Source of the DNA: Daejeonella sp.
GTDB lineage: Bacteria; Bacteroidota; Bacteroidia; Sphingobacteriales; Sphingobacteriaceae
Assembly (NCBI RefSeq): GCF_030684675.1
Contig: NZ_JAUXXZ010000031.1
Coordinates: 1-64,000 of the forward strand
Direction: 5' to 3'
DNA: 64,000 nt
Both the position numbers and the translations under genes were made by a program. Positions 26,686-61,454 of the stretch are shown here, in pieces (within the stretch, counting starts at the first letter, position 1; the number at the start of each line of letters is the position of its first letter). The notes under the pieces were generated by a model that worked only from the letters and a program-made list of their open reading frames with translations, searched no databases and had not been told where the DNA came from.

Positions 26686-26724
26686 TGTATATTAAAGCCT
26701 TGAATTTTTAAGAAAACTGAATAT

Positions 26725-29345: not shown

Positions 29346-29403
29346 AATTATTAAGTCTAAAATCACTTAATGTTTAATTTGAATTAATTTAAAATATTGA
29401 ATT

Positions 29404-32176: not shown

Positions 32177-32245
32177 CATTAGCAGGATTAAAGTTCTTTA
32201 ACAAACCAAGATTAATTGATAAATTAAATTTTAAAACAAATAAGC

Positions 32246-35278: not shown

Positions 35279-35439
35279 ATTAATATTATACCTGTTCGAT
35301 CATTATGCAGTAATAATCTGGTTAACAGGCTTTTTTCAGAAATTATGTTCATGATTTCGTAAAATAACATTAGTTGTTGATCAGAATTTAATGAATTTTT
35401 ATTCTTTATACAATGAAGCATTGTAGTCGCCATATAAAA

Positions 35440-42432: not shown

Positions 42433-42733
42433 TGAAATAGATTTCTTCCTTCATTGATTCATAAGAAATGATCTGCAATTTTGATTTGATTTTGAACTTG
42501 TCAACAGGGATTCTTAAGAAATTATGTATGGTTTTATATTATCATTTTCTGATATTTTTACATCCTTTTATAGGCATTTAATTGTCAGCTCTTAGCTTAG
42601 AAAATACTTCTGATTGTGTCTAAAGGACACTAAGTTTCAGTATCTAAAATATTACCCGGGTAATTTCTTCTGCTTGTTTTTATTTTTCACATTGGATTTT
42701 TATTTATTAATTTCGATTATATTAGTAGTTGAA

Positions 42734-43291: not shown

Positions 43292-43372
43292 TTCCATTTT
43301 TATCAAAAAATATTTTCATTCCCACTAAGGGATAGGCCAGGGTTGGGGGACTTGTATATAAAGACCCCTTTC

Positions 43373-44623
43373 ATGAAACCTTTAAGTTCAAACGAGCGAT
43401 ATCAGGAATTAGCCGAAAAATGGCTCAATAATACTATAAGTCCTCAGGAGAGCGAGGAGTTTCTTCAATGGTACAATAGCGGGCAGGAGAATGATATCTA
43501 TATTCCCAGAGATTATGCTGAAAGTGATCAGGAGTTAAAAAGAAGAATCTTTGCGGAGATAAACCACAATATTTCTGAGCCTATTCTCTCTCCATCCTAT
43601 AGAATTCAATCATGGTTTGCAGCAGCGGCAGTAATTATAGCTGTTTTCGCTGCGGGCCTTTATTTCTCTTCAGAAACAAAGGAAACCAAACAATATGTTG
43701 CTGATAAATTAATTTCAGAGCCTACAACGGCTTCTCCTATAAGAGGGGTATCTCCGGTTTCTGAAGTTGAAGATCAAAAGCCTGTTGTGGTCATTGATAT
43801 CGAAGCAGGCGAAAATAAGGCAATACTTACACTGGGTGACGGCTCGAAAATTATTTTGGATGATGCAAAGAATGGAATTCTTGCAAATCAGGGTGGAAAT
43901 AGTGTTCTGAAGGCGGCAGAAGGTGAGGTCATCTATTCATTCCTGAGCGAAGTAAAAGATCCACTGACAGTAGATGAACATACTCCGGTTATTTATAATA
44001 CAATAGAAACCCCAAAGGGAGGTAAATTTCAGATTAAGTTACCGGATGGAAGTAAAGTTTGGTTGAATGCTGCCTCTTCACTTCGTTTTCCAACAGTATT
44101 CAATGGGTCCAAAAGGCAGGTTGAACTAAAAGGTGAGGCCTATTTTGAAGTATCACCGGATAAATCAAAAATATTTGAGGTCAATACCAGAAATCAGGTC
44201 GTACAGGTACTTGGAACACATTTTAATATCAATGCATATCTGGATGAACCAACTGTAAATACAACGTTACTGGAGGGTAGCGTAAGGGTCTCTGATCTGC
44301 GGACTAATATTTCTCAATTGCTCAAACCAGGGGAACAATCTCAGTTGAGTGAGCAGATCGAGGTGATAAATTTAAAAAACACCAACGAAGCTGTTGCCTG
44401 GAAAGAAGGTTATTTCCAGTTTGATGACGCGGATATAAAGACAGTCATGAGGCAAATAGAACGCTGGTATGACGTATCGGTCGTTTATGAAGGAGATGTG
44501 CCCAATTATCGCTTTGGTGGTGAAATTGAAAGAAATTTAAGTCTGTTACAAGTACTTAAAGTATTGGAAAAAACAAAAGTTCATTTTCGTTTAGAGGGAA
44601 GGGAGGTTATAGTAATGCGATAA
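43373..44623 (+). CDS. FecR-family anti-sigma factor
   Basis: TPKGGKFQIKLPDGSKVWLNAASSLRFPTVF…LKGEAYFEVSPDKSK; TM segment; start at 43373 preferred. Confidence 0.9.
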   Translation: MKPLSSNERYQELAEKWLNNTISPQESEEFLQWYNSGQENDIYIPRDYAESDQELKRRIFAEINHNISEPILSPSYRIQSWFAAAAVIIAVFAAGLYFSSETKETKQYVADKLISEPTTASPIRGVSPVSEVEDQKPVVVIDIEAGENKAILTLGDGSKIILDDAKNGILANQGGNSVLKAAEGEVIYSFLSEVKDPLTVDEHTPVIYNTIETPKGGKFQIKLPDGSKVWLNAASSLRFPTVFNGSKRQVELKGEAYFEVSPDKSKIFEVNTRNQVVQVLGTHFNINAYLDEPTVNTTLLEGSVRVSDLRTNISQLLKPGEQSQLSEQIEVINLKNTNEAVAWKEGYFQFDDADIKTVMRQIERWYDVSVVYEGDVPNYRFGGEIERNLSLLQVLKVLEKTKVHFRLEGREVIVMR

Positions 44624-44738: not shown

Positions 44739-47700
44739 ATGAATTCTCTAACTAATAAAGAGTATTGTTTAGACATTACTCGGTCAAAAGTCTGCCATAA
44801 ATCAGACGCCTTAGACCATACAGAGCAACATCAGATTGCTGATAATCTGATAAAAAAGTCGCTTTACAAACAAATCGGACGGATTATGAAACTGACGTTC
44901 ATTTTAATCATGGTTGCACTAATGAATGTCTATTCTAAAGGATATTCACAAAAAGTAACCCTTACGGGTAAACATGCCCCGCTGGAGGAGTTCTTCTCTA
45001 CTATCAAGCAGCAAACGGGCTATGTGTTTTTTTATGACCTGAATCTGTTAAAAACAGCGAAGCCGGTAACCTTAAAAATAGTCGATACCGAATTATCGGA
45101 GGCTTTAGCTATTCTTTTTAATGATCAGCCATTGGATTACAGTATTGAGAATAAAACCATTGTAATCAGTGAGAAATTATCTGCAAAAGATAGAAAATCC
45201 CTGAAGAACATGAGTTTCATGCTTATGGATATCCGTGGTAAAGTTGTGGATTCAAAAGGAGAGACTCTCCCGGGTGTTAGTGTCCGTGTAAAGGGTACAG
45301 CTGTTGGAACAACGACAGATGCTCAGGGTAATTTCGTTTTGAATGCTCCTGATAATGGCACTCTGGTTTTTAGCTATATAGGTTATATAAGCCAGGAAGT
45401 TACTGTTAATAGCAGATCTACCATTAATGTAACTATGGTTGAAGATTCACAAATGCTTGGAGAGGTTGTGGTAACTGCTCTGGGTATCGAAAGATCCTCT
45501 AAATCCTTAAACTATGCTGCACAGACTGTTAAAACAGCTGATCTTAATCAGGCTAAAGAAACAAACCTGATCAATTCATTGGCTGGAAAAGTTGCCGGTG
45601 TAACTATTACCAAGAATGCAACCGGACCGGGTAGTTCTTCTAATGTGGTTTTACGTGGTCAACGCTCTGTATTCGGCAGTAACCAACCTTTATATGTTAT
45701 TGATGGTGTTCCTATGGACAATACTAGTCGTGAGGTAGGTACAGGTGGTACACATGGAAGCCGGGATGGTGGAGATGGTATAGGTATGTTGAATAGTGAT
45801 GATATTGAATCCATGACTATCCTTAAAGGTGCTTCAGCTGCGGCATTATATGGAAGTGCGGGACAAAATGGTGCAATCATTATTACAACCAAAAGAGGAA
45901 AATCAGGTAAGATTACCGTTGATTATACCGGAAATACAACTGTTGATCGCCCATTTATCCTTCCTGAAGTACAGGCAGAGTACGGACAAGGTGCTGGTGG
46001 TGTTTATAATGCAAACTCTGAAACTAGCTGGGGTCCAAAAATTACCGGGCAATCAGTTACTTTATGGAATGGAAAAACTACTTCTCTTCAGGGACAACCT
46101 GATCGTATAAAAGATTTTTATCGTGATGGCTCAAGTTTGACAAATACAATAGGAATTAGTGGTGGTAGTGAGAAAATGCAAACCTATTTTTCATATGGTA
46201 ATAATCAAGCGAAAGGTATTCTTCAAAACCATGTGTTAGACAGACATAATTTTGATTTCAAGATCGATAATAGTATTACCGACAAACTTTCATTCTTCAC
46301 AAAGCTAAGTTATATTGTTGAAGATGTTGATAATAAGCCCTTTACTGGTGAAAGAAATGATGCAACTGGTAGTATATATCATGCTCCGGCTTCCATTCCA
46401 CTGAGTGAAATGCAGAATTACGAATATACTGATGTTTTGGGTAACCTTAGACAAAGCTATTGGCTTCCAGGCTCTATTTACCTGTCGAATCCATACTGGA
46501 AGATGAACAGGCAAGTGTTTTATGAGCAAAAGCGTCGTATGATTGGCCTGTTACAAGCAAAGTATAAGTTTACTAACTGGCTTGATTTTATGGTTCGTGG
46601 TAGTATGGATAGAACTGACGAAAATACTGAGAATATACAGTATAATGATTCCTATGAACTTTCGGGAAATGGGAGCTATTATGAACTTTATTCCGGAAAC
46701 AGAAGGTTTACCAATGTGGATGCATTACTTTCCTTTAAAAGAGACATTACAAAGGATTTTAATTTAACCGGATATCTTGGAGGTTCAATTCAGGAAACCA
46801 AATATGAATCAATTAACACTCTTGCAAATGGTCTGAATAAGCTTGACTTCTTCTTTATGTCTAATGCGAAAAATCCAAGAACTACAAACGTAGTTGGCCA
46901 AACCCCTCAAGTACAGTCTGTGTATGGTACTTCAACCCTGTCATTTAAGGATTACCTTTATCTGGATGTAACTGCCAGAAATGATTGGTCTTCTGCTTTA
47001 CCTAAGGCGAATCAGTCTTATTTCTATCCATCAGTAGGATTGACAGCTATAATAACAGATATGCTCGACTTGCCTAGCTGGATTTCTTATGGCAAGCTCA
47101 GGACTACCTACGCAAAAGCTGGTTTTGGTGGACAGCAATATTTGACAGATAATTATTTTTCTGTAGGGGCTGGTGGCGCCATAAATACTCCTAGTGTTAG
47201 ATCACTCGGGAATTATCAACCGGAAATTACTACTTCATTTGAAGCCGGATTAGACTGGCGATTCTTTACCAACCGGATAGGGCTTGATGTTACTTATTAT
47301 AGATCTAATACTGAAAACCAGTTAATTGCTTTGGCTGTTCCAAATGCTACACTCTTTAGTTCTCAGTATATTAATGCCGGATTGATCAGGAATAGTGGAG
47401 TGGAAATTATGTTAAGCGGTGCGCCAGTTAGAAATCAGAATTTTTCTTGGGACATAATGGCTAACTTCTCTAAAAATGTGAATAAAGTTGTTGAGTTATC
47501 ACCGAGATTAAAAACAGCTGTTTTAGGGGATGACAGACAGGTTCTCGAAACAGTTGAAGAAGGCAAGTCCTTTGGAGAAATGTATATGGCCGAATGGAGT
47601 AAAGATGCACAAGGCAGAAGGTTAGTTAGTCCTGCAGGTGTTCCAATTCTTACCGGGAAAACAGCTTATGCAGGAAATTATAATCCTAATTATATGCTTG

Positions 47701-48206
47701 GTGTCAACAATTCATTTACGTTTAAAAATCTTAACCTCAGTTTCTTATTAGATTACAGAAATGGCGGTACAGTTGTAGCCGGTACTTTAGCTGCAATGGA
47801 TGTGAGTGGTAACTCGAAAAGTTCTCTTCAATATAGAGAAACCGGGATTGTTGTGGATGGTTATACTACAGCCGGTGTAAAAAACACAACATCAATTACT
47901 GCAGAAAGATACTGGCAATCATTAGGTAACAGAACTCCTGCAAAAGACTTTTATGCTTTTTCTGCGACTAACCTTAGGCTAAGAGAGGTGGTATTTGGTT
48001 ACAGAATTCCAAATCAGCTTGTTCAAAAATCAGGATTTATTAAGAATGCCAGATTATCTCTGGTTGGAAGGAATCTGCTATTCTTAAAGAAATATGCGCC
48101 TTACGATCCTGAGATTGCTACTGCAGTGACTAATAGGGGTGGTATGGAATATTCTTCTTTACCTACAACCCGTAATATTGGTCTAAGCCTGAACGCATCA
48201 TTCTAA
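44739..48206 (+). CDS. SusC/RagA-family TonB-linked outer-membrane protein with STN domain
   Basis: STN region, DSKGETLPGVSVRVKGTAVGTTTDAQGNF, plug motif, C-terminal NIGLSLNASF; start may instead be near 44886. Confidence 0.95.
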   Translation: MNSLTNKEYCLDITRSKVCHKSDALDHTEQHQIADNLIKKSLYKQIGRIMKLTFILIMVALMNVYSKGYSQKVTLTGKHAPLEEFFSTIKQQTGYVFFYDLNLLKTAKPVTLKIVDTELSEALAILFNDQPLDYSIENKTIVISEKLSAKDRKSLKNMSFMLMDIRGKVVDSKGETLPGVSVRVKGTAVGTTTDAQGNFVLNAPDNGTLVFSYIGYISQEVTVNSRSTINVTMVEDSQMLGEVVVTALGIERSSKSLNYAAQTVKTADLNQAKETNLINSLAGKVAGVTITKNATGPGSSSNVVLRGQRSVFGSNQPLYVIDGVPMDNTSREVGTGGTHGSRDGGDGIGMLNSDDIESMTILKGASAAALYGSAGQNGAIIITTKRGKSGKITVDYTGNTTVDRPFILPEVQAEYGQGAGGVYNANSETSWGPKITGQSVTLWNGKTTSLQGQPDRIKDFYRDGSSLTNTIGISGGSEKMQTYFSYGNNQAKGILQNHVLDRHNFDFKIDNSITDKLSFFTKLSYIVEDVDNKPFTGERNDATGSIYHAPASIPLSEMQNYEYTDVLGNLRQSYWLPGSIYLSNPYWKMNRQVFYEQKRRMIGLLQAKYKFTNWLDFMVRGSMDRTDENTENIQYNDSYELSGNGSYYELYSGNRRFTNVDALLSFKRDITKDFNLTGYLGGSIQETKYESINTLANGLNKLDFFFMSNAKNPRTTNVVGQTPQVQSVYGTSTLSFKDYLYLDVTARNDWSSALPKANQSYFYPSVGLTAIITDMLDLPSWISYGKLRTTYAKAGFGGQQYLTDNYFSVGAGGAINTPSVRSLGNYQPEITTSFEAGLDWRFFTNRIGLDVTYYRSNTENQLIALAVPNATLFSSQYINAGLIRNSGVEIMLSGAPVRNQNFSWDIMANFSKNVNKVVELSPRLKTAVLGDDRQVLETVEEGKSFGEMYMAEWSKDAQGRRLVSPAGVPILTGKTAYAGNYNPNYMLGVNNSFTFKNLNLSFLLDYRNGGTVVAGTLAAMDVSGNSKSSLQYRETGIVVDGYTTAGVKNTTSITAERYWQSLGNRTPAKDFYAFSATNLRLREVVFGYRIPNQLVQKSGFIKNARLSLVGRNLLFLKKYAPYDPEIATAVTNRGGMEYSSLPTTRNIGLSLNASF

Positions 48207-48258
48207 TAGCTAATTGGCTATTGAATTAAATATTATTATTAACATTAAATTGAATACA

Positions 48259-49821
48259 ATGAAAACTCAAAAATCATTATATAGAAAATGGGCCGTTAGG
48301 TTTCTGCTATTTTTAGCGCCAATCGTAATACTAACTGCCTGTACTAAAAATTTCGATGAAATAAATAAAAAACCAGATGGTTTAAAGGAACTCACTGCAC
48401 CGGATTTACGTAGCTTATTCCCAGGTGCATTAGTTGCCGGAGGTGGTATCGGTTATAACGAAACATCCATGCTCTTGTTTCCTGGAGTATACTCTCAACA
48501 TTTTGCCAGTACTAACACATTTCAGGAGTCTCACAGATATGTTATTGTGCAAAGATGGCAGGACATTTGGCCTGGAACCTATGTAAATGCAATGCCTAAA
48601 TTAGTAAATATTATCGCGGCAACTAAAGGTGGAAAAGAACCTAGCATGAATGCAATTGCCAGAATGTGGAAAGTTTTCTGTTTTATGCGTGTGACTGACG
48701 AATGGGGTCCAGTTCCATATTCTAAAATTGGCAAGGATACCACAGTTGTGAATTATGATGATCAAAAGAGTATTTATTTTGATTTCTTCAAAGAGCTTGA
48801 CGAAGCAACAGCGGATCTGAAAAACAATTTAGCTAAACCTTCATTTGCAACATCAGATCGTATCTATAATGGAGATAATGCAAAATGGTTAAAGTTTGGA
48901 AATACATTACGCCTTCGTTTAGCATTGAGAATTTCGGATGTAGAGCCTGCTAAAGCCAAAGTGGAAGCTGAGAAGGCATTTGCTGCCGGAGTAATGACAG
49001 CGGTTGCAGATGGAGCATATTTTGCAACTAATGCAGATTTTACCAATGGACTAAATAATTTTATGGGTAGAAATGGCTCTCGGATGAGTACCACTATGGA
49101 AAGTTTATTAGTAGGCTATAATGACCCAAGGCTACCTGTATTTTGGAGCCCTGCACTTTCCGATGGTAAGTTCCGTGGTGTAAGAAACGGAATGACCGTT
49201 GCTCAACAAAATTTGCCTGCAAATAGTATTAACAATAATTCAGCAGTTGGTCCGAAGTATGCTCCTGCCACGATGACTACAACTCCACAGGTTGTTTTTT
49301 ATGCCTCTGAGGCATATTTTCTTAGGTCCGAAGGTGCATTGAATGGCTGGAATATGGGTGGAACCGCCAAAGAACTATATGAGATGGGGATTGAAACTTC
49401 ATTGCGTGAGCATGGCATTACCAGTGCGGCAGTTATTTCTGATTATGTTAATGGTACAAGTCTACCTATCGCACCTAATAATCTGTTCCCTACTCCCCCA
49501 TTAACAGATATTCCTGTAAAGTGGGAATCTGCTACTGAAAGACAGCGTGAACAAATCGGAACCCAGAAATGGATTGCTTTATTTCCGGAAGGTCATGAGG
49601 CTTGGGCTAGTATCAGAAGGTCAGGATATCCTAAATTTTATCCTTTGTTGAATTCTCAAAATCCTGATATAACACCGGATAAAATGATCCGGAGAATATC
49701 CTTCCTCGACAGGGAGATCATTGCTAATGGTGTTGCAGTTAAGGCAGCAATTCCATTGTTGGGTGGTGGTCCCGATAACGTGGCTACCCGTTTGTGGTGG
49801 GATAAATCAAAATCAAATTAA
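48259..49821 (+). CDS. SusD/RagB-like outer-membrane lipoprotein
   Basis: Lipobox VILTACTKNFDEINKKPDGL; follows SusC. Confidence 0.9.
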   Translation: MKTQKSLYRKWAVRFLLFLAPIVILTACTKNFDEINKKPDGLKELTAPDLRSLFPGALVAGGGIGYNETSMLLFPGVYSQHFASTNTFQESHRYVIVQRWQDIWPGTYVNAMPKLVNIIAATKGGKEPSMNAIARMWKVFCFMRVTDEWGPVPYSKIGKDTTVVNYDDQKSIYFDFFKELDEATADLKNNLAKPSFATSDRIYNGDNAKWLKFGNTLRLRLALRISDVEPAKAKVEAEKAFAAGVMTAVADGAYFATNADFTNGLNNFMGRNGSRMSTTMESLLVGYNDPRLPVFWSPALSDGKFRGVRNGMTVAQQNLPANSINNNSAVGPKYAPATMTTTPQVVFYASEAYFLRSEGALNGWNMGGTAKELYEMGIETSLREHGITSAAVISDYVNGTSLPIAPNNLFPTPPLTDIPVKWESATERQREQIGTQKWIALFPEGHEAWASIRRSGYPKFYPLLNSQNPDITPDKMIRRISFLDREIIANGVAVKAAIPLLGGGPDNVATRLWWDKSKSN

Positions 49822-50052: not shown

Positions 50053-52101
50053 ATGCTAGAATCTAATGAGAACTTTTCTGCCTTAACTGATATGGAGCAT
50101 TCGGGTGGTAGTACTGAAAATGATATCTCTACACTTCCTCGTCAACTTTTTGATGAAAATATATCTTCTGCAAACCTTCAATTGAAACGAAGGAAGTTCT
50201 TAGGCCTGGGATTACTGGGAATGGCTGGTTTTGGATTACCATTTAGAGCAAATGGATTTGATAATAAAATTGTTGAAGAATTTGTAAATGATATTGTTGC
50301 CTCGGAAACTGATTTGTTTAAAAAGCATTCGGATAGTTTTGAGGATAAAATGAAATTGATGCAGAAGGCCTGGGATGAAAAGGATTTCAGGATGGTGCGT
50401 TCCCTAAGTGACTCTATCAGGAATACGGGTATTCAGGCTCAGAATGAATATGAAGATCCGGGTAAGCCTTTGGTCAGTGGGAGTCAGTTTGGGATTGTTG
50501 CAAGCCTTCCGCTAGCCTGGAGAACCTGGGCAAAAGGCTGGAAATATTACAAAACCATTGGTCTTGAAGAAAAGGCCGGAATATCAAGACAAGCTGAACC
50601 GGTAGAAGTTCTGTTAGGCTTCCGTTCTGATCAGGTTAACTCATTGGCACGTGAAATTCGTGTGGTAGAAATTAATAATGGCTTACTAAAAGAAGTTACC
50701 TCCCAGGTTTTTGGAGTTGTGAGAAGAGGAACTGACAGGTTGTGTAAGGTCATGTTTTTGGCTGATAATAATGGGTCTGAAAAACGACAATATTTAGTTT
50801 TCTACGGAAATCCTGATGCTGAATTACCCGAATATACAACAGATCTTGAAGTGAGAGGGGAAGGCTATGATCTTGAAATTGAAAATCAGTATTTTATTGC
50901 CAAACTTTCTAAGCAAACTGGTCAATTGGAGCGGATGCTGATTAAGAGGGAGCATGGTGTTGAATTATATGCCGGTGGTCCGGCTCATGCAGAAACTCCC
51001 TGCATTGACTGGTCCCATGATTACGTTGCTGAAGATTTTTTTATGAAAGTCAGGATTCAGTACTGGGGTGAATGCCCTGATTATGAGATTGTTCGTGGAC
51101 CAATATGTACAATAGTCAGACGCTGGGGCTTTCCACACTCAGCACTTCATCCAATCTATAATCCTTCACGTCTGAATATTAATGTAGAGTATCGATTTTA
51201 TTCAGGATTGCCATACTTCTACAAATCCAGTAAAATGAAGGCTGTAAAAGCGTTTGTTATCCAGACTATGCGGGATGATGAATGGGTTTTCACAGGTCAG
51301 CCTTTTACCGGAAGTTTATGGATTGGAGCTGATGAGAAAGTAAAGTTCGGCGAAGTTGATGAAGCCAATAAAAACAGTGTAAGGGGATTTGGCTACTATA
51401 ATAAAGATTCGAAAGACTCTTTTGTGGGTCTTTATTTAGATCATTCTTCGGAAGTAATACCAGATCTTCTGAATGGTGGTGGTTCCTTGTTTTACTATAA
51501 CTGGCACGGAACAGTATGGGTCCGCCATCCAACCATGGTGGGAATAAAAAACCATACCATACCGGAAGGCGCTATTCTTAAGCAAAAGAACGCTTACGTT
51601 ACGATTGCCTTTACTCAAAAGGATGGGCCAGGCAAAATTGAAGCACTGAGGAAAGAACTATTAAGTCCTATGGACAGTTATTCTTCCGGCTTAACAGCTA
51701 TAGCTTCTGCAAAGGAAAGTAAACGCTCCCTGGCAAGACCTGGTGAAGCCGGGGATAGCCCGATCTCTAAGGCTGTTTTATGGGAGGCATTGAAAAGCTG
51801 TATTGATCAGCAAATGTACATTTCAAATGTAAATCTGGTTGAACTCGGCTACATTTATAATCTTTCTATGGATGATGATGGCGTAGTTAAAGTTCTCATG
51901 ACTATGCCACACAGGGGACGACCATTATCGAGTTTCTTTATCTGGGGTTCCAGTGTAGTACATCGTACAGTTTCAAAAACAATTGTCGGCGCATTAATGG
52001 AAATTCCGGGAGTTCGCAAAGTTGTTGTAGACCAAACCTGGTATCCTGAATGGAATTCCAATCTAATGACCGACGACTGTCGTAAAAAATTAGGAATATG
52101 A
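50053..52101 (+). CDS. Tat-type exported glycan-lyase-like protein fused to C-terminal MIP18/DUF59-like domain (paralogue 1)
   Basis: KRRKFLGLGLLGMAGFGLPF signal; REHGVELYAGGPAHAETPCIDWSHDY; C-terminal VELGYIYNLSMDDDGVVKVLMTMPHRGRPL…IPGVRKVVVDQTWYPEWNSNLMTDDCRKKLGI. Confidence 0.7.
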   Translation: MLESNENFSALTDMEHSGGSTENDISTLPRQLFDENISSANLQLKRRKFLGLGLLGMAGFGLPFRANGFDNKIVEEFVNDIVASETDLFKKHSDSFEDKMKLMQKAWDEKDFRMVRSLSDSIRNTGIQAQNEYEDPGKPLVSGSQFGIVASLPLAWRTWAKGWKYYKTIGLEEKAGISRQAEPVEVLLGFRSDQVNSLAREIRVVEINNGLLKEVTSQVFGVVRRGTDRLCKVMFLADNNGSEKRQYLVFYGNPDAELPEYTTDLEVRGEGYDLEIENQYFIAKLSKQTGQLERMLIKREHGVELYAGGPAHAETPCIDWSHDYVAEDFFMKVRIQYWGECPDYEIVRGPICTIVRRWGFPHSALHPIYNPSRLNINVEYRFYSGLPYFYKSSKMKAVKAFVIQTMRDDEWVFTGQPFTGSLWIGADEKVKFGEVDEANKNSVRGFGYYNKDSKDSFVGLYLDHSSEVIPDLLNGGGSLFYYNWHGTVWVRHPTMVGIKNHTIPEGAILKQKNAYVTIAFTQKDGPGKIEALRKELLSPMDSYSSGLTAIASAKESKRSLARPGEAGDSPISKAVLWEALKSCIDQQMYISNVNLVELGYIYNLSMDDDGVVKVLMTMPHRGRPLSSFFIWGSSVVHRTVSKTIVGALMEIPGVRKVVVDQTWYPEWNSNLMTDDCRKKLGI

Positions 52102-52207
52102 GCAATAAGATACAAATTCAATATTTTGTTCTGGTATTATTAACCTGATATCCGATACGATATACCTTATTTTATGACAATAGTAATTTGAAATATAAAT
52201 TAGAAAA

Positions 52208-54244
52208 ATGAAAACAAATATTCCAAATCAATCCGAAATAAAGATGCTTAATGACTCATTTTCTGAAAAATTAGATGAAGGTTTTTCGCCTTCCAAAGCA
52301 AATGAGAATGAGCTCTCAGCTCAGATTTCGGATCCTATCAAACGAAGAAAATTCCTGGGAATGAGTTTGTTAGGCATTGTTGGTCTGAGTTTGCCCTTTG
52401 GGGCTAGAGCCGAAAATAATTCTGTTGAGGACTTTGTAAAAGGAGTTATAGCTGCAGAAACTGAACTTTATAAGAAGCAGTCGGATACCTTCGAAACAAA
52501 GATAAAATTAATTGAAAAAGCCTGGGCAGAAAAGGATTACCGAATGGTGCGGTCATTAAGTGATTCATTGCGGAATACAGGTATTCAGGCACAAATTGAA
52601 GATGAAGATCCGGGAAAGCCTTTGGTAGGTTCGGGCCAGTTTGGCACTGTTGCAACGCTTCCTGCGGCCTGGAAATCATGGGCGAATGGTTGGAAATATT
52701 ATAAAGTAATTGGTTTAGAAGAAAAAGCAGGTATTAAAAGAAATGCAGAGCCTGTGGAGGTTCTCTTAGCTTTTCAATCTGAACAGGTAACCTCTCTTGC
52801 ACGGGAAATTCGTGTTGCCGAGATCAGTAATGGTCAGATAAAGGAAGTCACTTCTCAGGTTTACGGAGTTGTAAGAAGGGGAGCTGAAAGATTATGTAAA
52901 CTGATGTTTCTTGCTGATAATCAGGGTCGTGAAAAACGCAATTATCTCGTGTTTTTCGGTAATCCGGATGCCGAACTGCCTGAATATACTTCAGATCTTG
53001 AAGTAAGCGGAGAAGGCTATCACTTAAAAATAGAAAATCAATACTTTATTGCCTCACTTTCTAAACAAACTGGTCAATTGGAGCGGATGTTAATTAAAAG
53101 GGAGCATGGGGTTGAATTATATGCAGGAGGTCCCGGACACGGAGAAACTCCTTGTATCGACTGGGCTCACGATTATGTTTCTGAAGATAATTTTATGAAG
53201 GTCAGAATCCAGTACTGGGGTGAATGCCCCGATTATGAAATTGTACGTGGTCCAATCTGTACTATTGTCCGTCGCTGGGGATTCCCGCATTCGGCCCTGC
53301 ATCCTGTCTATAATCCATCCCGTTTAAATATTGACATTGAGTACCGCTTCTATGCCGGACTACCTTTCTTCCACAAGTTTGGTAAAATGAAAGCTGTCAA
53401 GCAATTTGTTTCTACCGCTCTCAGAGATGATGAATGGGTATTTACAGGTCAGCCTTTTACAGGAAGTTTGTGGATGGGAGCTGATGAAAAGTTGAAATTC
53501 GGGGAGATAGATGAAGCAAATAAACACAGTGTTAAGGCCTTCGGATACTACAACAAAGACTCCAAAGATTCATTTGTAGGTTTGTATTTAGAACATTCTG
53601 CAGAAGAAATTCCGACATTTCTTCATGCCGGACATTCCATGCTATATTATAACTGGCATGGAACCACATGGTCACGCTATCCGCTCGAAAGAAATCAAAT
53701 CGTGTCGGTAGGAGCAATTCTGCATCAGAAAAATGCCTATGTAACTATTGGTTTTACCGAAGCTGATGGACCGGCTAAAATTGAAGCATTAAGAAAAGAA
53801 TTATTAAGTCCGCTATCAACCTTTCAGGCTGCATTGCCAACTGGAGTAGCGGCGAAAGAAAATAAGAGGGTTCTTGCAAGAGAAGGTGAAGCACAGAATG
53901 GGCAGATTCCAAAACAGGTTTTGTGGGATGCTTTACGGAATTGTAAAGATCAGCAGTTGTATATCGCAGATGTCAATATTGTTGAGCTGGGATATATTTA
54001 TAATCTTTCAATGGATGATGATGGTGTAGTAAAAGTTTTGATGACAATGCCACATCGAGGCAGACCATTATCGAGTTTCTTTATCTGGGGATCAAGTGTA
54101 GTACATCGTACTGTCTCAAAAACCGTAATGGGAGCACTTACTGAAATTCCGGGTGTTCAAAAAGTTATTGTTGATCAGACCTGGTATCCGGAATGGAATT
54201 CCAATCTCATTTCTGAGGAGGGTCGTAAAAAATTAGGCATATAA
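52208..54244 (+). CDS. Tat-type exported glycan-lyase-like protein fused to C-terminal MIP18/DUF59-like domain (paralogue 2)
   Basis: KRRKFLGMSLLGIVGLSLPFG signal; same two-part architecture; VELGYIYNLSMDDDGVVKVLMTMPHRGRPL. Confidence 0.7.
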   Translation: MKTNIPNQSEIKMLNDSFSEKLDEGFSPSKANENELSAQISDPIKRRKFLGMSLLGIVGLSLPFGARAENNSVEDFVKGVIAAETELYKKQSDTFETKIKLIEKAWAEKDYRMVRSLSDSLRNTGIQAQIEDEDPGKPLVGSGQFGTVATLPAAWKSWANGWKYYKVIGLEEKAGIKRNAEPVEVLLAFQSEQVTSLAREIRVAEISNGQIKEVTSQVYGVVRRGAERLCKLMFLADNQGREKRNYLVFFGNPDAELPEYTSDLEVSGEGYHLKIENQYFIASLSKQTGQLERMLIKREHGVELYAGGPGHGETPCIDWAHDYVSEDNFMKVRIQYWGECPDYEIVRGPICTIVRRWGFPHSALHPVYNPSRLNIDIEYRFYAGLPFFHKFGKMKAVKQFVSTALRDDEWVFTGQPFTGSLWMGADEKLKFGEIDEANKHSVKAFGYYNKDSKDSFVGLYLEHSAEEIPTFLHAGHSMLYYNWHGTTWSRYPLERNQIVSVGAILHQKNAYVTIGFTEADGPAKIEALRKELLSPLSTFQAALPTGVAAKENKRVLAREGEAQNGQIPKQVLWDALRNCKDQQLYIADVNIVELGYIYNLSMDDDGVVKVLMTMPHRGRPLSSFFIWGSSVVHRTVSKTVMGALTEIPGVQKVIVDQTWYPEWNSNLISEEGRKKLGI

Positions 54245-54267
54245 TTTCGAAGAATTAAATTTTTACC

Positions 54268-56268
54268 GTGAAAAAAATTAATCCAGCTAAATCAGAATCA
54301 ATGCTTCAGGAAGCAACCTCAGCAAGACCATATCCGAATGAAACCCGGGATTCGGAAGGAATGAAGCGACGAAAATTTCTTGGTATGGGTTTATTGGGTG
54401 TGGCAGGTCTAAGTTTGCCACTTGCCAATACAGCCAAAGCTAATACCGCCGTTGAGAATTTTGTGGCTGAATCTGTTTCAATCTCAGAGTCTGTCTCCAG
54501 CCAGTCGGATAGTTTCGAGGATAAGATGAAAATGCTTCAGAAGGCCTGGGATAAGAAAGATTATCGTCTGGCCCGGGCATTAACAAATTCGCTTCGAATC
54601 TCTGAAATTCAGGCACAGGCAGATCATGAGGATTTGGGAACTCCTCTGGTTGGAGCAAATCAATTTGGGACTGTTGCTTCACTTCCATCTGCCTGGAAGA
54701 ACTGGGCGAAGGGCTGGTTGTATTATAAAGTTGTGAATCTGGAAGAGAAGGCGGGTATCCAGCGTAAAGCAGAACCTGTAGAGGTTTTGCTGAGTTTTCA
54801 GGCAACTCAGGCTGCCTCACTTGCCCGCGAGGTTCGTGTTGCCGAGATAAAGGATGGAGCATTGACAGAGGTTATATCACAGGTATTTTCAGAAATTAGA
54901 CGAGGAGCTGAAAAGATTTGTAAACTTCTGTTTCTTGCAGATAATCAGGGTAAAGAGAAGCGGACTTACCTCATTTTTTATGGTAATCCGGATGCAGAAC
55001 TGCCCAATTATCAATCGGATCTGAAGGTGACTGGCGAAGGTTATGGTCTGGATATTGAAAACGAATATTTCACCGCTTATCTTTCAAAGCAAACCGGTCA
55101 GCTGGCCAGATTGATTTTGAAACGCGAGCATGGATTAGAGGTCTACTCTGGCGGACAAGGACATGGTGAACCTGCCGGTATCGATTGGGCACATGATTAT
55201 GTGACTGAGGATAATTTTCAAAAAGTGCGGATCTCCCTTTGGGAAGAATGCCCGGATTTTGAAGTTGTCAGAGGTCCTATCTGTACAATCATTCGTCGCT
55301 GGGGAGTACCTTATTCCCCGGTACATCCAATTTTCTCTCCTGCCAGGATGAATATGGATATCGAGTATCGTTTCTATGCCGGTTTACCTTATTTTCACAA
55401 GTTTGGTCATATGTCGGCGCTTAAGACATTTGATATGGTCTATGTAAGAGATGATGAATGGGTAATTACCGGACAATCATTTACTGATATGCTCTGGATG
55501 AATTCTGAAGGTGAGGTGCAATTGGGGCCGGTGCCTGAAGAATCAGCAGAAAAATTATGGGGAGTAGGCTTCTTTAACAAAGACACGAAGGATTCTTTTA
55601 TTGGGCTCTTTCTTGACCATCATACTGATGGATTCCAGGAACCAAGTCATAACGGATCACCGAACTTCTATTACAAATGGCATGGTCAGTTCTGGCAAAG
55701 AATGCCGGTGCCAAAAGGGGTAAAAACAATACCGGAAGGTGCTGTTTTTCATCAAAAGAACGCCTATGTTACCCTTCCTTTTGATACAAAAGATGGTCCC
55801 GCAAAGATCGAAGGATTGAGAAAAGAATTAATGAATCCATTGCATGGTTCTGCAAGTTCGCTTCAAGTGAATGGTCTTGCAAAGGAAAGTCCGGGACGTT
55901 TGGCCAGACTTGCAGAGGCTCAGGATAGCCCGATTTCAAAAGAATTGATCTGGAAGGCTCTTAGAGATGTTAAAGATCCCCAATTCTATAAATCAGATAC
56001 CAGCATAGTAGATCTCGGCTTAGTATATGATGTGACAGTAAGGGGGAGTGTTGTAAAAGTATTAATAGCAATGCCTCATCGGGGCCGCCCGCTTGGGACC
56101 TATTTTGCCTATGGATCTAATGTGGTGCATCCCACTACTTCCAAAAATATTTTAACAGCGGTGTATGAGGTTCCGGGGGTTAAGAAAGTGATCATGGAAC
56201 AGACCTGGTATCCGGGCTGGAGTTCTAATATGCTGACGGATGATGGACGCAAAAAATTGGGTATTTAG
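54268..56268 (+). CDS. Tat-type exported glycan-lyase-like protein fused to C-terminal MIP18/DUF59-like domain (paralogue 3)
   Basis: MKRRKFLGMGLLGVAGLSLPL signal; VDLGLVYDVTVRGSVVKVLIAMPHRGRPL…WYPGWSSNMLTDDGRKKLGI; GTG start or internal ATG at 54361. Confidence 0.7.
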   Translation: MKKINPAKSESMLQEATSARPYPNETRDSEGMKRRKFLGMGLLGVAGLSLPLANTAKANTAVENFVAESVSISESVSSQSDSFEDKMKMLQKAWDKKDYRLARALTNSLRISEIQAQADHEDLGTPLVGANQFGTVASLPSAWKNWAKGWLYYKVVNLEEKAGIQRKAEPVEVLLSFQATQAASLAREVRVAEIKDGALTEVISQVFSEIRRGAEKICKLLFLADNQGKEKRTYLIFYGNPDAELPNYQSDLKVTGEGYGLDIENEYFTAYLSKQTGQLARLILKREHGLEVYSGGQGHGEPAGIDWAHDYVTEDNFQKVRISLWEECPDFEVVRGPICTIIRRWGVPYSPVHPIFSPARMNMDIEYRFYAGLPYFHKFGHMSALKTFDMVYVRDDEWVITGQSFTDMLWMNSEGEVQLGPVPEESAEKLWGVGFFNKDTKDSFIGLFLDHHTDGFQEPSHNGSPNFYYKWHGQFWQRMPVPKGVKTIPEGAVFHQKNAYVTLPFDTKDGPAKIEGLRKELMNPLHGSASSLQVNGLAKESPGRLARLAEAQDSPISKELIWKALRDVKDPQFYKSDTSIVDLGLVYDVTVRGSVVKVLIAMPHRGRPLGTYFAYGSNVVHPTTSKNILTAVYEVPGVKKVIMEQTWYPGWSSNMLTDDGRKKLGI

Positions 56269-56336
56269 AATTGAGATTATATAATTAGTTTATCTAAAAA
56301 GATACTTTTTACTAATGAATATTTGACATAAACAGA

Positions 56337-58376
56337 ATGAACATGAAGAAATTTAATCCAAGCAAGTCTGCATTAAAAATGCATGATAATTCCTCTGAAA
56401 AAGGAATAGGAGAGCTAACAGAAATTACAAAAGCCGGTTCAGAACCGCAGTTCACTGACGGGATGAAACGTCGTAAATTCTTGGGTATGGGTCTTTTAGG
56501 TTTTGCAGGTTTGACCTTACCTTTAAGTTCAAAATCAGAAGCTCAGAATTCTATTGAGAATTTTGTAAAGGAGAGCATTGCACCTTTTGCTGATAAAACA
56601 ACCAGTCAGACTGATAGTATTCAGGAAAAAATTCAATTGCTTCAGGAAGCATTGGGAAAGAATGATTACAGAACAGCCAGAGCCCTTACTAATTCAATCC
56701 GGATATCAGAAATACAATCTCAGGCTGAAGAGGAGGATTTCGGAACCCCTCATGTTGCTGCAAGCCAGTTTGCAACGGTTGAGTCACTTCCTTCAGCCTG
56801 GAAAACCTGGGCTAAAGGCTGGAAATATTATAAGGTTGTAAGTCTGGAAGAAAAAATTGGTACTCCGCGTAAAGCAGAACCGGTTGAAGTTTTGTTGAGT
56901 TTTCAGGCAGCTCAAACTGCATCACTGACGCGTGAAATACGGGTAGCAGAAATTAAAGACGGTGTTTTGACTGAAGTAATTTCTCAGGTGTTCTCCGAGG
57001 TACGAAGAGGGTCAGAAAAGATCTGTAAATTATTATTCCTTGCTGATAATCAGGGTAAGGAAAAGAGACAATACATTGTTTTCTACGGTAATCCGGATGC
57101 AGAATTACCTAACTATCAGTCTGATTTGAAGGTTACCGGTGAAGGCTACGGACTGGATATAGAAAATGAATTTTTTACAGCCATTCTATCCAAACAAACC
57201 GGACAGCTTGCCCGAATGATCTTAAAACGTGAGCATGGCCTGGAGATCTATTCCGGTGGTCAGGGTCATGGCGAACCTGCCGGAATTGATTGGGCTCATG
57301 ATTATGTTTCAGAAGATGGGGTTCAAAAAATGCGCATCTCATTATGGGATGAGTGTCCTGATTTTGAGGTTGTTAAAGGTCCGATATGTACTATTATTCG
57401 TCGCTGGGGATTCCCTTATTCACCCGTACATCCTATATTCTCGCCTGCCAGGATGATCATGGATATAGAGTATCGCTTTTATGCTGGTTTACCTTATTTC
57501 CATAAGTTCGGGCATATGACTGCAGTCAAGCAATTCTCACCTGCAGCTTTAAGAGATGATGAATGGGTAATAACCGGACAGTCATTTACCGATATGTTAT
57601 GGATGGGACCAGATGAAAAATTAAAAACAGGAAATGTTCCTGCAGAGTTAAGTGAGAAATTATGGGGAATTGGTTTCTTCAATAAAGATACCAAGGATTC
57701 ATTCTTCGGATTCTTCCTTGAGCATCATGCAGAAGGTTTAGGGGCTGAATTAGCTCATAATGGATCACCTAATTTACATTATCAATGGCATGGACAAATC
57801 TGGAGCAGATACCCGGTTCCAAAAACAATAAAGACCATCCCTAAAGGAGCAGTATTGCATCAGAAGAATGCCTATGTAACAATACCATTTACCTTGAAGG
57901 ATGATACTGTAAAGATTGAAAACCTGAGACAAGAGCTTCTAAATCCATTGAGCAGATCAGGGTCAATGCTTCCTAATGGAATAATCGCTAAAGAAAGTCC
58001 GCGTCGTTTGGCACGGGCATCCGAAGCTCAGGACAGTCCGATCAATAAAGCATTGCTTTGGGAAGCATTGGGATTGGTAAAAGATCCGCAGCTGTATAAA
58101 TCTGATATCAGTATTGTTGATCTGGGATTGGTTTATGATATAGCGGTTCGTGGTAGTGTGGTAAAAGTAACCCTGGCGATGCCGCACAGAGGCCGGCCAC
58201 TCGGTGCTTATTTCACGCATAGTTCCAACGTGGTTCATTCCAGTGTTTCAAAAACGATGATGGAAGCCCTTTATGCTGTTCCGGGTGTCAAAAAAGTAAT
58301 TATGGAACAAACATGGTATCCTTTATGGAGTGTGAACCTGCTTACAGATACTGGTAGAAAGAAACTGAATCTTTAA
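56337..58376 (+). CDS. Tat-type exported glycan-lyase-like protein fused to C-terminal MIP18/DUF59-like domain (paralogue 4)
   Basis: MKRRKFLGMGLLGFAGLTLPL signal; VDLGLVYDIAVRGSVVKVTLAMPHRGRPL…WYPLWSVNLLTDTGRKKLNL. Confidence 0.7.
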   Translation: MNMKKFNPSKSALKMHDNSSEKGIGELTEITKAGSEPQFTDGMKRRKFLGMGLLGFAGLTLPLSSKSEAQNSIENFVKESIAPFADKTTSQTDSIQEKIQLLQEALGKNDYRTARALTNSIRISEIQSQAEEEDFGTPHVAASQFATVESLPSAWKTWAKGWKYYKVVSLEEKIGTPRKAEPVEVLLSFQAAQTASLTREIRVAEIKDGVLTEVISQVFSEVRRGSEKICKLLFLADNQGKEKRQYIVFYGNPDAELPNYQSDLKVTGEGYGLDIENEFFTAILSKQTGQLARMILKREHGLEIYSGGQGHGEPAGIDWAHDYVSEDGVQKMRISLWDECPDFEVVKGPICTIIRRWGFPYSPVHPIFSPARMIMDIEYRFYAGLPYFHKFGHMTAVKQFSPAALRDDEWVITGQSFTDMLWMGPDEKLKTGNVPAELSEKLWGIGFFNKDTKDSFFGFFLEHHAEGLGAELAHNGSPNLHYQWHGQIWSRYPVPKTIKTIPKGAVLHQKNAYVTIPFTLKDDTVKIENLRQELLNPLSRSGSMLPNGIIAKESPRRLARASEAQDSPINKALLWEALGLVKDPQLYKSDISIVDLGLVYDIAVRGSVVKVTLAMPHRGRPLGAYFTHSSNVVHSSVSKTMMEALYAVPGVKKVIMEQTWYPLWSVNLLTDTGRKKLNL

Positions 58377-58474: not shown

Positions 58475-59782
58475 ATGTCTGGCCGAAAAATAAAAAATTA
58501 TCGCTGGCTCATCTTAACCTTATTGGTTTCGGCCACTACAATCAATTACCTTGACAGGCAAATCCTTGGTTTACTAAAACCAACCCTTGAAGTGGAGTTC
58601 ACCTGGTCTGAAACAGATTTTGCTTTTCTGGTAATGGCATTTACTGGTGCTTATGCGGGTGGTTTGATCTCATGGGGATGGTTGATTGACCGGATTGGAA
58701 CCAAACCCGGGTATGTTATTTCAGTTGCGGCATGGAGCATTATGGGCATGCTGCATGCAGCCGCAAGAAGTGTTACTGGCTTTGGGTTAGCCAGGATTGG
58801 TTTAGGTCTGACTGAATCAGGAAATGTACCTGCCGGTATGAAAACGATTGCAGAATGGTTTCCAAAAAAAGAACGAGCATTAGCTACCGGTTTATTTAAT
58901 GCAGGAACCAGTTTTGGTATAATCATAGCCTTGCTTATTGTTCCCTGGATTCTGAGGAATTATGGCTGGCATGAAGTATTCATTATTACCGGATCTGTGG
59001 GTTTTATATGGCTCTTGGTTTGGATATATGTTTATGATGTACCATCGAAACACAAACGCTTAACTGAAGAAGAGTATAACTATATTCATGACGGGCAAAA
59101 ACTCGATTCCGAGGCTGAGGTAGAAGTTGTGAAAATAAAATGGTTCAAACTATTTACATATCCTCAGACCTGGGCATTTATTACAGGCAAGATATTACTT
59201 GATCCCATTTATTGGTTTTTCATGTTTTGGTTGCCATCCTATTTCGCTTCAACTTTCAAGCTGAATATGTCGAATTTGAGCCCTGAATTGATGATAATCT
59301 ATACTATGACCATTTTAGGAAGTGTAGGAGGTGGTTATTTTTCATCCTGGCTAATCAAAAGAGGCTGGCCGACTTTAAAAGCAAGAAAAACTGCACTTTT
59401 TATTTTTGCAATTATGGAATTAACCGTACTTTCCGCTCAGTATGCAACCAATGCATGGATGGTAGTTGGAATCCTCAGTTTTACGCTGGCGATACATCAG
59501 GCCTGGAGTACAAATATATTTACATTGGTTGTTGACCTTTTTCCGAAGCAGGCAGTAAGCTCTGTTACAGGTATAGGTGCGATGTCCGGAGCGGTAGGAG
59601 GTATGCTGTTCCCATTATTCGTTGGATATATTTTGGACAGCTACAAATCTGCGGGGAATTTAATCGGAGGCTATAATCTGCTTTTCATTATTTGCGGATT
59701 GACCTATCTTTTTGCCTGGACGATCATTCATTTATTGACCAGGAAATCAGATACTGTAAGTTTACAGGAATTGGTTGAATAA
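58475..59782 (+). CDS. ExuT-like hexuronate MFS transporter (ACS family)
   Basis: TTINYLDRQILGLLKPTLEVEFTWSETDFAFLVMAFTGAYAGGLISWGWLIDRIGTK; GLTESGNVPAGMKTIAEWFPKKERALATG. Confidence 0.85.
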   Translation: MSGRKIKNYRWLILTLLVSATTINYLDRQILGLLKPTLEVEFTWSETDFAFLVMAFTGAYAGGLISWGWLIDRIGTKPGYVISVAAWSIMGMLHAAARSVTGFGLARIGLGLTESGNVPAGMKTIAEWFPKKERALATGLFNAGTSFGIIIALLIVPWILRNYGWHEVFIITGSVGFIWLLVWIYVYDVPSKHKRLTEEEYNYIHDGQKLDSEAEVEVVKIKWFKLFTYPQTWAFITGKILLDPIYWFFMFWLPSYFASTFKLNMSNLSPELMIIYTMTILGSVGGGYFSSWLIKRGWPTLKARKTALFIFAIMELTVLSAQYATNAWMVVGILSFTLAIHQAWSTNIFTLVVDLFPKQAVSSVTGIGAMSGAVGGMLFPLFVGYILDSYKSAGNLIGGYNLLFIICGLTYLFAWTIIHLLTRKSDTVSLQELVE

Positions 59783-59846: not shown

Positions 59847-60593
59847 ATGAAAATTGAATTTAAAGATCAGGTGGGAATTATTACCGGAGCTGCCTCCGGT
59901 TTAGGTCAGGCTATCGCCTTGAACTTATCAAAAAAGGGTGTAAAACTTGCCTTATTTGATAGGGATACAAATGGTTTACAAAAAACAAGGAACCTGTTGG
60001 CAGGGGAGTCAGAAATCTATGTTTTAGATATTACAAATGAAGCAGAAGTTGCAGATTCAATTAACAAAGTAAATGAGCATTTTGGCAGGATTGATATTCT
60101 GGTCAATTGTGCAGGTATTGTTGGAAAAACAAATATCCTTAGTCATGAAGTTGAGGCTGAAAATATGCAATTGGTTCTTAATGTGAATCTGATGGGATCA
60201 TTTTATACCTCTAAATACGCAATACCAAAAATGCTTAAGAATAATTATGGAAGGGTTCTTCACATAGCCTCCATTTCGGGTAAGGAAGGCAATGCCGGAA
60301 TGCTTGCCTATTCTACATCCAAAGCTGCCGTAATTGGTATGACCAAAGTGCAGGGTAAAGAATATGCTGAGACGGGAGTTACTATCAACGCACTTGCACC
60401 TGCAGTAATTCGTACCGCAATGGTTGAATCCCTGCCTGATGAACAGGTGAAATATATGACTGATAAAATTCCGATGAAACGATGCGGGACTTTGGAAGAG
60501 GCGGCATCAACTGCTGCTTTCATCGTATCGCCTGAAGCAAGTTTTTCTACGGCATTTACCTTCGATCTTTCAGGTGGAAGAGCAACTTATTAA
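59847..60593 (+). CDS. SDR-family NAD(P)-dependent oxidoreductase (FabG/KduD-like)
   Basis: VGIITGAASGLGQAIA, ILVNCAGIVG, YSTSKAAVIG motifs. Confidence 0.85.
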   Translation: MKIEFKDQVGIITGAASGLGQAIALNLSKKGVKLALFDRDTNGLQKTRNLLAGESEIYVLDITNEAEVADSINKVNEHFGRIDILVNCAGIVGKTNILSHEVEAENMQLVLNVNLMGSFYTSKYAIPKMLKNNYGRVLHIASISGKEGNAGMLAYSTSKAAVIGMTKVQGKEYAETGVTINALAPAVIRTAMVESLPDEQVKYMTDKIPMKRCGTLEEAASTAAFIVSPEASFSTAFTFDLSGGRATY

Positions 60594-60674: not shown

Positions 60675-61454
60675 ATGTATTGGGATCAACTTACATCCGT
60701 ACAGCTCGCTGCTCTGGATAAACAAACTCCTGTTCTCTTGAACATTGCTGCCATTGAGCAACATGGAGCCCACTTGCCGGTAGCTACAGACAGATTGATT
60801 GGGGAACATTTTTCAAGCCTGCTTAATAATGAAATAGGTGATAAAGTTCTGATTCTGCCAATTGTTGCAGTTGGATGTTCAGATCATCACATGGGCTTTT
60901 GCGGAACTCTTACACTCAGTCATCATACATTTGCGGCTGTTGTGAAAGAAATTATACAATCTGTTTTAAACCATGGATTTTATAATATTATTCTGCTGAA
61001 CAGCCATGGCGGAAATCAGGGCATTATGCAGGTCATTATTGAACAACTTGGATTTGCCAACCCGAATGCTCATATCCTTGGTGCTTCCTGGTGGAATGTA
61101 GCAAAAGAAGAACTACTGAAAATCACAGAAACAGGTCCTGGGGGCACCGGCCATGCTTGCGAATTTGAAACTTCTTTGATGAAGGTTATTGGCCCGCACT
61201 TAGTTCAGGAATCATTGATAAAGCCTGGAGCCAATGTACCGGCATTTCCTTCGGTGGAAGGAGATTTGCTATCCGGCCCCAAAATTTCCTTTTATCGCAC
61301 GATGAAGGAGTTGACTCCCAATGGTGTTTATGGTGATCCAACCAAATCCTCTGCTGAAAAAGGGGTTCGTATTGGTGAATGTGTTACAGCCGCTTTAAAA
61401 CAATTGGTATCAGATATCTATAAACTGAAGGGGAGAAAATACACTAAATCCTGA
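60675..61454 (+). CDS. Creatininase-family protein (creatinine amidohydrolase-like)
   Basis: PVLLNIAAIEQHGAHLPVATDRLIGE; LLNSHGGNQGIMQ; GGTGHACEFETSLM metal-site motifs. Confidence 0.85.
   Translation: MYWDQLTSVQLAALDKQTPVLLNIAAIEQHGAHLPVATDRLIGEHFSSLLNNEIGDKVLILPIVAVGCSDHHMGFCGTLTLSHHTFAAVVKEIIQSVLNHGFYNIILLNSHGGNQGIMQVIIEQLGFANPNAHILGASWWNVAKEELLKITETGPGGTGHACEFETSLMKVIGPHLVQESLIKPGANVPAFPSVEGDLLSGPKISFYRTMKELTPNGVYGDPTKSSAEKGVRIGECVTAALKQLVSDIYKLKGRKYTKS

What the first reader, a model, noticed from the sequence alone, without database searches (positions are those of the whole stretch)
50053..58376. Four tandem Tat-type glycan-lyase-like proteins each carrying a C-terminal MIP18/DUF59-like domain
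Seen: all four ORFs end in ~110 aa of the form [V/I]xLGxxYx(L/V/I)…VVKVxxxMPHRGRPL…A(L/V)xx(I/V)PGVxKVxxxQTWYPxWxxN(L/M)…(R)KKL. Coordinates are ~51766-52101, 53909-54244, 55936-56268 and 58044-58376. Knowledge: the MIP18/DUF59 (SufT/PaaD-like) fold is normally a small cytosolic Fe-S or metal-cluster assembly protein with a DLGLVY motif, a conserved Cys-Pro after the second strand, and a terminal WxPxW…(R)xxLG signature. Inference: finding it as the tail of a large exported protein in a SusCD uronate locus is unexpected and has no obvious precedent known to me. It could be a glycan-binding, dimerisation or metal-binding module.
Basis: partly seen in the sequence, partly recalled or inferred. 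Interest (0 to 1): 0.9.

Follow-up and report, generated by a model that had tools for sequence, protein, structure and literature searches.

The report
Exported proteins with repurposed DUF59 tails
Four neighbouring bacterial genes make exported, probably sugar-handling proteins that end in a domain normally used inside cells to help build iron-sulfur proteins, but here that domain has lost its key residues and kept a new fixed motif, so it has probably been given a new job outside the cytoplasm.

Summary
Four tandem ORFs (50053-58376, +) each have a Tat signal, about 470 aa with no Pfam family, and a C-terminal ~115-aa DUF59/MIP18 domain (NCBIfam E 1e-9 to 3e-13; the tail of an AlphaFold model matches solved DUF59 structures with Foldseek probability 1.00). 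The tail is not a working SufT/PaaD copy. The published motif DPE-X26-31-T-X2/3-C is in 0 of 30 tails and 19 of 21 comparators (21 of 21 in relaxed form). The Cys position is Arg, an ~11-aa loop is inserted, and a new motif MPH[RK]GRP is invariant (30/30). It is as constrained as the main domain (pairwise dN/dS about 0.02-0.05). The fusion was seen only in Daejeonella: 10 of 20 genomes, always with a creatininase-family gene of the same cassette. Two distant homologues of the main domain in another family lack the tail and the Tat motif, so the tail looks like a lineage-specific addition. 'Glycan-lyase-like' is unproven: no PL family matches, only weak super-sandwich fold hints. Most likely the tail is a repurposed binding or dimerisation module of an exported SusCD-locus protein. 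No such architecture was found in the papers searched. New variant of a known domain; function untested.

The parts
50053..52101 (+). Fusion protein 1 (682 aa): Tat signal + unnamed beta-rich domain + DUF59 tail
52208..54244 (+). Fusion protein 2 (678 aa)
54268..56268 (+). Fusion protein 3 (666 aa, GTG start as listed)
56337..58376 (+). Fusion protein 4 (679 aa)
50185..50238 (+). Tat-type signal (RRKFLG + hydrophobic stretch) of protein 1
52340..52393 (+). Tat-type signal of protein 2
54364..54420 (+). Tat-type signal of protein 3
56466..56522 (+). Tat-type signal of protein 4
50293..51714 (+). Main (N-terminal) domain of protein 1, no Pfam family
52445..53857 (+). Main domain of protein 2
54472..55884 (+). 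Main domain of protein 3
56574..57992 (+). Main domain of protein 4
51736..52098 (+). DUF59/MIP18 tail of protein 1
53879..54241 (+). DUF59/MIP18 tail of protein 2
55906..56265 (+). DUF59/MIP18 tail of protein 3
58014..58373 (+). DUF59/MIP18 tail of protein 4
51904..51927 (+). MPHRGRPL motif of protein 1, replacing the canonical TxxxC-P/G
54047..54070 (+). MPHRGRPL motif of protein 2
56071..56094 (+). MPHRGRPL motif of protein 3
58179..58202 (+). MPHRGRPL motif of protein 4
39493..41082 (+). Sulfatase, conserved upstream member of the cassette (L013, L017)
41070..42218 (+). Formylglycine-generating-enzyme-like (SUMF1) protein, conserved upstream
42614..43291 (+). ECF-type sigma factor (identified by reading, no family search run), conserved upstream
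43343..44623 (+). FecR-type anti-sigma factor (identified by reading, no family search run)
44739..48206 (+). SusC-type TonB receptor (identified by reading, no family search run)
48214..49821 (+). SusD-type binding lipoprotein (identified by reading, no family search run)
58475..59782 (+). MFS transporter, best NCBIfam model the D-galactonate/ACS subfamily (below cut-off)
59847..60593 (+). Short-chain dehydrogenase
60675..61454 (+). Creatininase-family hydrolase; co-occurs exactly with the fusion in 20 genomes of the genus

Best explanation
Each protein is a Tat-exported, SusCD-locus protein whose main domain is an unnamed beta-rich family, probably a sugar- or sugar-acid-acting or -binding protein. 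In Daejeonella it acquired a DUF59-fold tail (inferred from distribution). The tail folds in the cytoplasm before Tat export and is carried out with the protein. It no longer serves iron-sulfur assembly: the Cys and DPE motif used for that are gone. In place of the Cys loop it carries an invariant, positively charged MPH[RK]GRP loop plus an insertion. The most likely role is an accessory module that binds an anionic ligand (uronate, sulfated or other acidic sugar) or a partner protein, or that pairs the protein with a second copy (SufT homodimerises). Shown here: fold, export signal type, loss of the motif, invariance of the new motif, purifying selection, genus restriction in the sample, tail-less homologues. 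Inferred: localisation, ligand, dimerisation, substrate.
For: DUF59 fold by family profiles, PDB sequence profile and Foldseek. Motif DPE-X26-31-T-X2/3-C in 0/30 tails against 19/21 comparators; MPH[RK]GRP in 30/30. The Cys is the residue through which Mtb SufT homodimerises and contacts SufS, SufU and clients (PMC9045647). dN/dS of the tail 0.018-0.047 in the 11 orthologue pairs, like the main domain (0.020-0.062) and below the signal/helical region (0.09-0.26). A Tat motif in every sequence with a complete N-terminus and TatC in the genome. The own genome has ordinary Mrp-size and stand-alone DUF59 genes besides. Homologues without tail and without RR motif: L110 606 aa (hhalign 99.8%, E 1.2e-28) and L091 396 aa (97.4%, E 1.1e-11). 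Conserved SusCD - fusions - MFS - SDR - creatininase cassette, present or absent as one unit (10/10 vs 0/10 genomes).
Against: Nothing here shows a ligand, dimer or location. In Mtb SufT the Cys itself is needed for homodimerisation, so its loss speaks against pairing by the known mode. The RR signal could be used for reasons unrelated to the tail, since other proteins of these genomes also carry RR signals (L088 dipeptidase and RidA, PL26 proteins of relatives). AlphaFold models are of low confidence (pLDDT 54 and 60), so surfaces and the position of the new motif could not be inspected. 'Anion-binding' rests only on the charge of the motif.
Confidence: 0.5

Rival explanations
1. The tail acts in the cytoplasm, in cis, before export: it loads a metal or other cofactor into the main domain, which is why Tat is used, and is then carried along.
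For: Tail-bearing forms have Tat-type signals while the two tail-less homologues have no RR motif. DUF59 proteins are maturation factors (PMC4982691, PMC9045647).
Against: The Cys that mediates contact with the Suf machinery is absent in 30/30 tails and the DPE motif is broken. The main domain shows no cofactor motif I recognise, and its relatives manage without the tail.
Confidence: 0.13
2. The tail is a folding or stability cap, or a Tat quality-control element, for the main domain, with no ligand of its own.
For: It is always present, at the extreme C-terminus, strongly constrained, and associated with Tat signals.
Against: The longest invariant run is the polar loop MPH[RK]GRP rather than core strands, which suggests a specific contact; tail-less homologues exist.
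Confidence: 0.17
3. The tail supplies part of an active site: His and Arg of MPHRGRP complete a catalytic pocket for a uronate or sulfated substrate.
For: Invariant H, R and (nearly) R in the loop that in ordinary DUF59 proteins lines the reactive pocket; sulfatase and acid-sugar-type transporter in the cassette.
Against: Homologues without a tail keep a set of invariant residues of the main domain, so its chemistry probably does not need the tail.
Confidence: 0.12
4. The main domain is a polysaccharide lyase (PL26- or PL8-like super-sandwich) and the tail is merely a carbohydrate-binding module. (This is partly compatible with the best explanation.)
For: Weak Foldseek matches to super-sandwich enzymes; hhalign to the periplasmic part of YidC, recalled to be a super-sandwich, 30% against 0.1-0.7% for controls.
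Against: No Pfam match; no profile similarity to PL26 above a shuffled control.
Confidence: 0.2

Closest known systems
DUF59 / FeS_assembly_P (PF01883): SufT, YitW, PaaD, MIP18/CIA2, Mrp N-terminal domain
   Same: Same ~100-aa fold, including the (D/E)LG..Y strand, PGV..V and W.P.W...R..L signatures.
   Different: C-terminal tail of a 680-aa protein with a Tat signal; no reactive Cys, broken DPE, 3-aa and ~11-aa insertions, new MPH[RK]GRP motif.
SufT modular architectures S1-S9 (PMC4982691)
   Same: DUF59 fused to other domains is known (U-type scaffold, Rieske, CysE, PaaJ/acetyl-CoA acetyltransferase, P-loop NTPase, DUF1858, PqqD).
   Different: None of those named partners is this domain, no exported case is described in the passages read, and all homologues kept the Cys.
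Polysaccharide lyase family 26 / PcRGLX (PF19501) and other super-sandwich carbohydrate enzymes
   Same: Beta-rich, similar order of a beta-sandwich followed by a super-sandwich-like region in weak models.
   Different: No sequence or profile similarity.
SusCD polysaccharide utilisation loci of Bacteroidota
   Same: Sigma/anti-sigma, SusC, SusD, exported proteins, transporter, dehydrogenase.
   Different: Contains 1-5 tandem DUF59 fusions and a creatininase-family gene; no recognised GH or PL among the cassette genes scanned.

Membership tests
DUF59/MIP18 fold (PF01883) | Significant similarity over the domain | tested here: met
   PF01883 above cut-off for two of four, profile to TM0487 E 2.8e-11
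DUF59/MIP18 fold (PF01883) | DUF59 three-dimensional fold | tested here: met
   3cq2/2cu6 probability 1.00, TM by target 0.74-0.75, from a low-confidence model made without outside DUF59 rows
SufT/PaaD/MIP18 Fe-S maturation factors | DPE-X26-31-T-X2/3-C with hyper-reactive Cys (PMC9045647) | tested here: not met
   0/30 tails; 19/21 comparators strict, 21/21 relaxed
SufT/PaaD/MIP18 Fe-S maturation factors | NCBIfam equivalog cut-off | tested here: not met
   best 50.1 bits against cut-offs of 108-203
SufT/PaaD/MIP18 Fe-S maturation factors | Cytosolic, linked to suf or paa genes | tested here: not met
   Tat-type signal (location itself not measured); SusCD cassette without suf/paa genes
SufT/PaaD/MIP18 Fe-S maturation factors | Promotes Fe-S protein maturation | not testable with these tools
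   needs a genetic or biochemical assay
Tat substrates | Twin-arginine motif followed by a hydrophobic stretch, TatC in the genome | tested here: met
   export itself not measured
Polysaccharide lyase family 26 / PcRGLX | Sequence or profile similarity to the family | tested here: not met
Polysaccharide lyase family 26 / PcRGLX | Fold | tested here: inconclusive
   E 0.02-0.16, probability 0.09-0.23, low-confidence models
SusCD polysaccharide utilisation locus | Adjacent SusC and SusD genes in conserved synteny | tested here: met
   (conserved in L005, L010, L011, L013, L015, L017; SusC/SusD identity by reading, not by a family search)

The most novel reading that the evidence does not exclude
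A DUF59 domain has been moved out of the cytoplasm and out of iron-sulfur biology: its reactive-Cys loop was rebuilt into an invariant MPH[RK]GRP loop that works extracytoplasmically as a ligand- or partner-binding site in a new class of sugar-utilisation protein.
Probability: 0.45. Interest if true: 0.72.

Novelty: new variant of a known kind. Interest (0 to 1): 0.58.

Why it matters
DUF59 is a very widespread domain whose basic biochemical activity is still debated. A version that carries an export signal, has lost the one strictly conserved Cys, and is nevertheless under strong selection separates what the fold does (bind, pair, present a loop) from what the Cys does (contact the Fe-S machinery). 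It also marks a so far unnamed exported protein family, found with and without the tail and repeatedly near PQQ-dependent dehydrogenases, as a target for function discovery in environmental Bacteroidota.

Tried and rejected
Ordinary SufT/PaaD homologue: rejected by motif loss and export signal. Chance resemblance of the tail: rejected. Vestigial tail: rejected by dN/dS 0.02-0.05 and 30/30 retention. PL26 membership of the main domain: no support. Viral and plasmid relatives of the main domain: none (viral scan; plasmids only E>=5). Two AlphaFold jobs gave low-confidence main-domain models; the better homologues L091 and L110 were found only afterwards. The G1088 hit (E 9e-4) is by reading a neutral-ceramidase-like protein sharing 43 residues and was rejected. 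YidC-like hits were used only as a hint to a super-sandwich fold. Literature: no exported or Cys-less DUF59 described in the papers searched (two apparent hits are DUF5982 and DUF5930).
Full report
Observation. The four ORFs at 50053-52101, 52208-54244, 54268-56268 and 56337-58376 exist as described, lie on the same strand with gaps of 23-106 bp, and the first three are 54-73% identical to the fourth. Each begins with a long leader ending in RRKFLG plus a hydrophobic stretch, and each ends in the reported block. hmmscan puts the block in PF01883 (E 9e-4 to 2.6e-6) and, over most or all of its length, in the NCBIfam SUF_assoc, PaaD and SufT models (E down to 2.8e-13). A profile of the tails finds TM0487, TTHB138 and other solved DUF59 proteins (E 2.8e-11, 2.2e-9). 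The tail of an AlphaFold model, built only from the fusions themselves, matches DUF59 structures at probability 1.00 and TM 0.75 despite low overall confidence. So the DUF59 reading stands.

What differs from a normal DUF59 protein. In work on Mycobacterium tuberculosis SufT the domain is described by DPE-X26-31-T-X2/3-C with a hyper-reactive Cys that mediates dimerisation and contact with SufS, SufU and clients (PMC9045647), and each SufT homologue of a survey of 761 carried the Cys (PMC4982691). Of 21 DUF59 proteins fetched here from the same phylum, 19 fit that motif strictly and 21 in a relaxed form; of 30 tails, none does. The Cys position is Arg, the Glu of DPE is usually Gln, three residues are inserted before the (D/E)LG strand, and ~11 residues after the GRPL. 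The sequence M-P-H-[R/K]-G-R-P is present in all 30, including divergent copies in L088 and L089. Pairwise dN/dS of the tail is 0.018-0.047 in the 11 orthologue comparisons, like the main domain (0.020-0.062) and well below the signal plus helical region (0.09-0.26); dS is near or above 1 in many pairs, so these ratios are approximate.

The main domain. Residues ~80-552 match no Pfam family even at permissive thresholds and no PDB sequence. Relatives were sought in samples of whole genomes of the order, class, phylum and one other family, close to 2000 genome searches in all, with overlap between samples. Full fusions were seen only in Daejeonella and near relatives binned with it. The class and family searches brought two true distant homologues from another Bacteroidota family: a 396-aa lipoprotein-like protein (L091, hhalign 97.4%, E 1.1e-11) and a 606-aa secreted protein (L110, 99.8%, E 1.2e-28). 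Neither has a DUF59 tail nor an RR motif. The simplest reading is that a broader exported family gained the tail, and a Tat-type signal, in one lineage; with two tail-less members this correlation is only suggestive. The fold is unsettled: weak matches to super-sandwich proteins (beta-galactosidase, GH36, PL26, PL8, YidC), none significant, and no profile similarity to PL26. 'Glycan-lyase-like' is therefore a hypothesis, not a result.

Neighbourhood. In the related loci long enough to show it, the order is sulfatase - formylglycine-generating enzyme - sigma - anti-sigma - SusC - SusD - one to five fusions - MFS transporter - SDR - creatininase-family hydrolase (no single locus outside the window shows all of it, and the sigma, anti-sigma, SusC and SusD labels are by reading). 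L015 lacks the creatininase at that place. L011 has a single fusion with a PQQ-dependent dehydrogenase in place of the MFS gene and a PKD protein before the fusion; relatives of those two lie at 35413 and 34187 in the window. The creatininase orthologue (73% identity or more) occurs in exactly the 10 of 20 Daejeonella genomes that carry the fusion (Fisher p 1e-5 if genomes were independent, which they are not). Further fusion copies sit in other SusCD loci of the same genus (L088, L089), and the tail-less homologue L110 also lies near a PQQ dehydrogenase. The MFS transporter resembles the galactonate/ACS subfamily, and the creatininase resembles, weakly, IolN, a hydrolase of an oxidised inositol. 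Together this suggests uptake and oxidation of an acidic or oxidised sugar, but the substrate is not known.

Mechanism. Best supported: an exported, SusCD-linked sugar-acting or sugar-binding protein with a DUF59-fold tail that has left iron-sulfur biology and works as a binding or pairing module through the MPH[RK]GRP loop (confidence 0.5 for the role; about 0.95 for the domain identity). The rivals - cofactor loading before export, a folding cap, a part of an active site - are not excluded. In the order sample (111 genomes) all other listed DUF59 matches are in frames of Mrp size (~354-418 aa) or in stand-alone frames (105-183 aa), though the list was cut at its weak end, and no published exported or Cys-less DUF59 was found. 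The library searched lacks most subscription papers, and the genome samples cover only Bacteroidota relatives, so precedent elsewhere cannot be ruled out.

Noticed in passing
window 34187-35278 and 35413-37620; L011 8828-9934 and 12036-14243; L089 4738-10489; L110 7471-9717: PKD-domain protein and PQQ/cytochrome-c dehydrogenase recur near the fusions and, for the dehydrogenase, near a tail-less homologue.
   Followed up: partly
L110 2624-4444 and 4441-7116: 606-aa homologue of the main domain without tail, overlapping by 4 bp the gene of an 891-aa secreted protein that also has no significant Pfam match; possibly a two-component exported system.
   Followed up: partly
L091 790-1980 / L100 1864-6441: 396-aa lipoprotein homologue of the main domain beside a DHDPS-like protein, an epimerase/dehydrogenase-like protein and an Nramp-like transporter.
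   Followed up: partly
window 37664-38953; L015 20609-21913; L089 3385-4674: Class-V aminotransferase (best NCBIfam hit SufS family, far below cut-off) recurring in these loci; the L089 copy has a lipoprotein-like leader and by reading no desulfurase Cys motif.
   Followed up: no
window 60675-61454: Creatininase-family protein with a weak match (77 bits, cut-off 245) to IolN, 3-dehydro-scyllo-inosose hydrolase; may open an oxidised sugar or cyclitol ring.
   Followed up: partly
window 20371-32719: A second SusCD-type locus with a SelA-like protein, three amidohydrolases, a dicarboxylate symporter and a RidA-like protein, suggestive of peptide or amino-acid derivatives rather than glycans.
   Followed up: no
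window 32885-33868: RES-domain protein (327 aa), larger than typical Res toxins; partner not sought.
   Followed up: no
L088 7745-12007: Two divergent fusions, one with a ~22-aa insertion in the main domain, followed by an M19 dipeptidase with a Tat-like leader and a RidA-like protein.
   Followed up: partly
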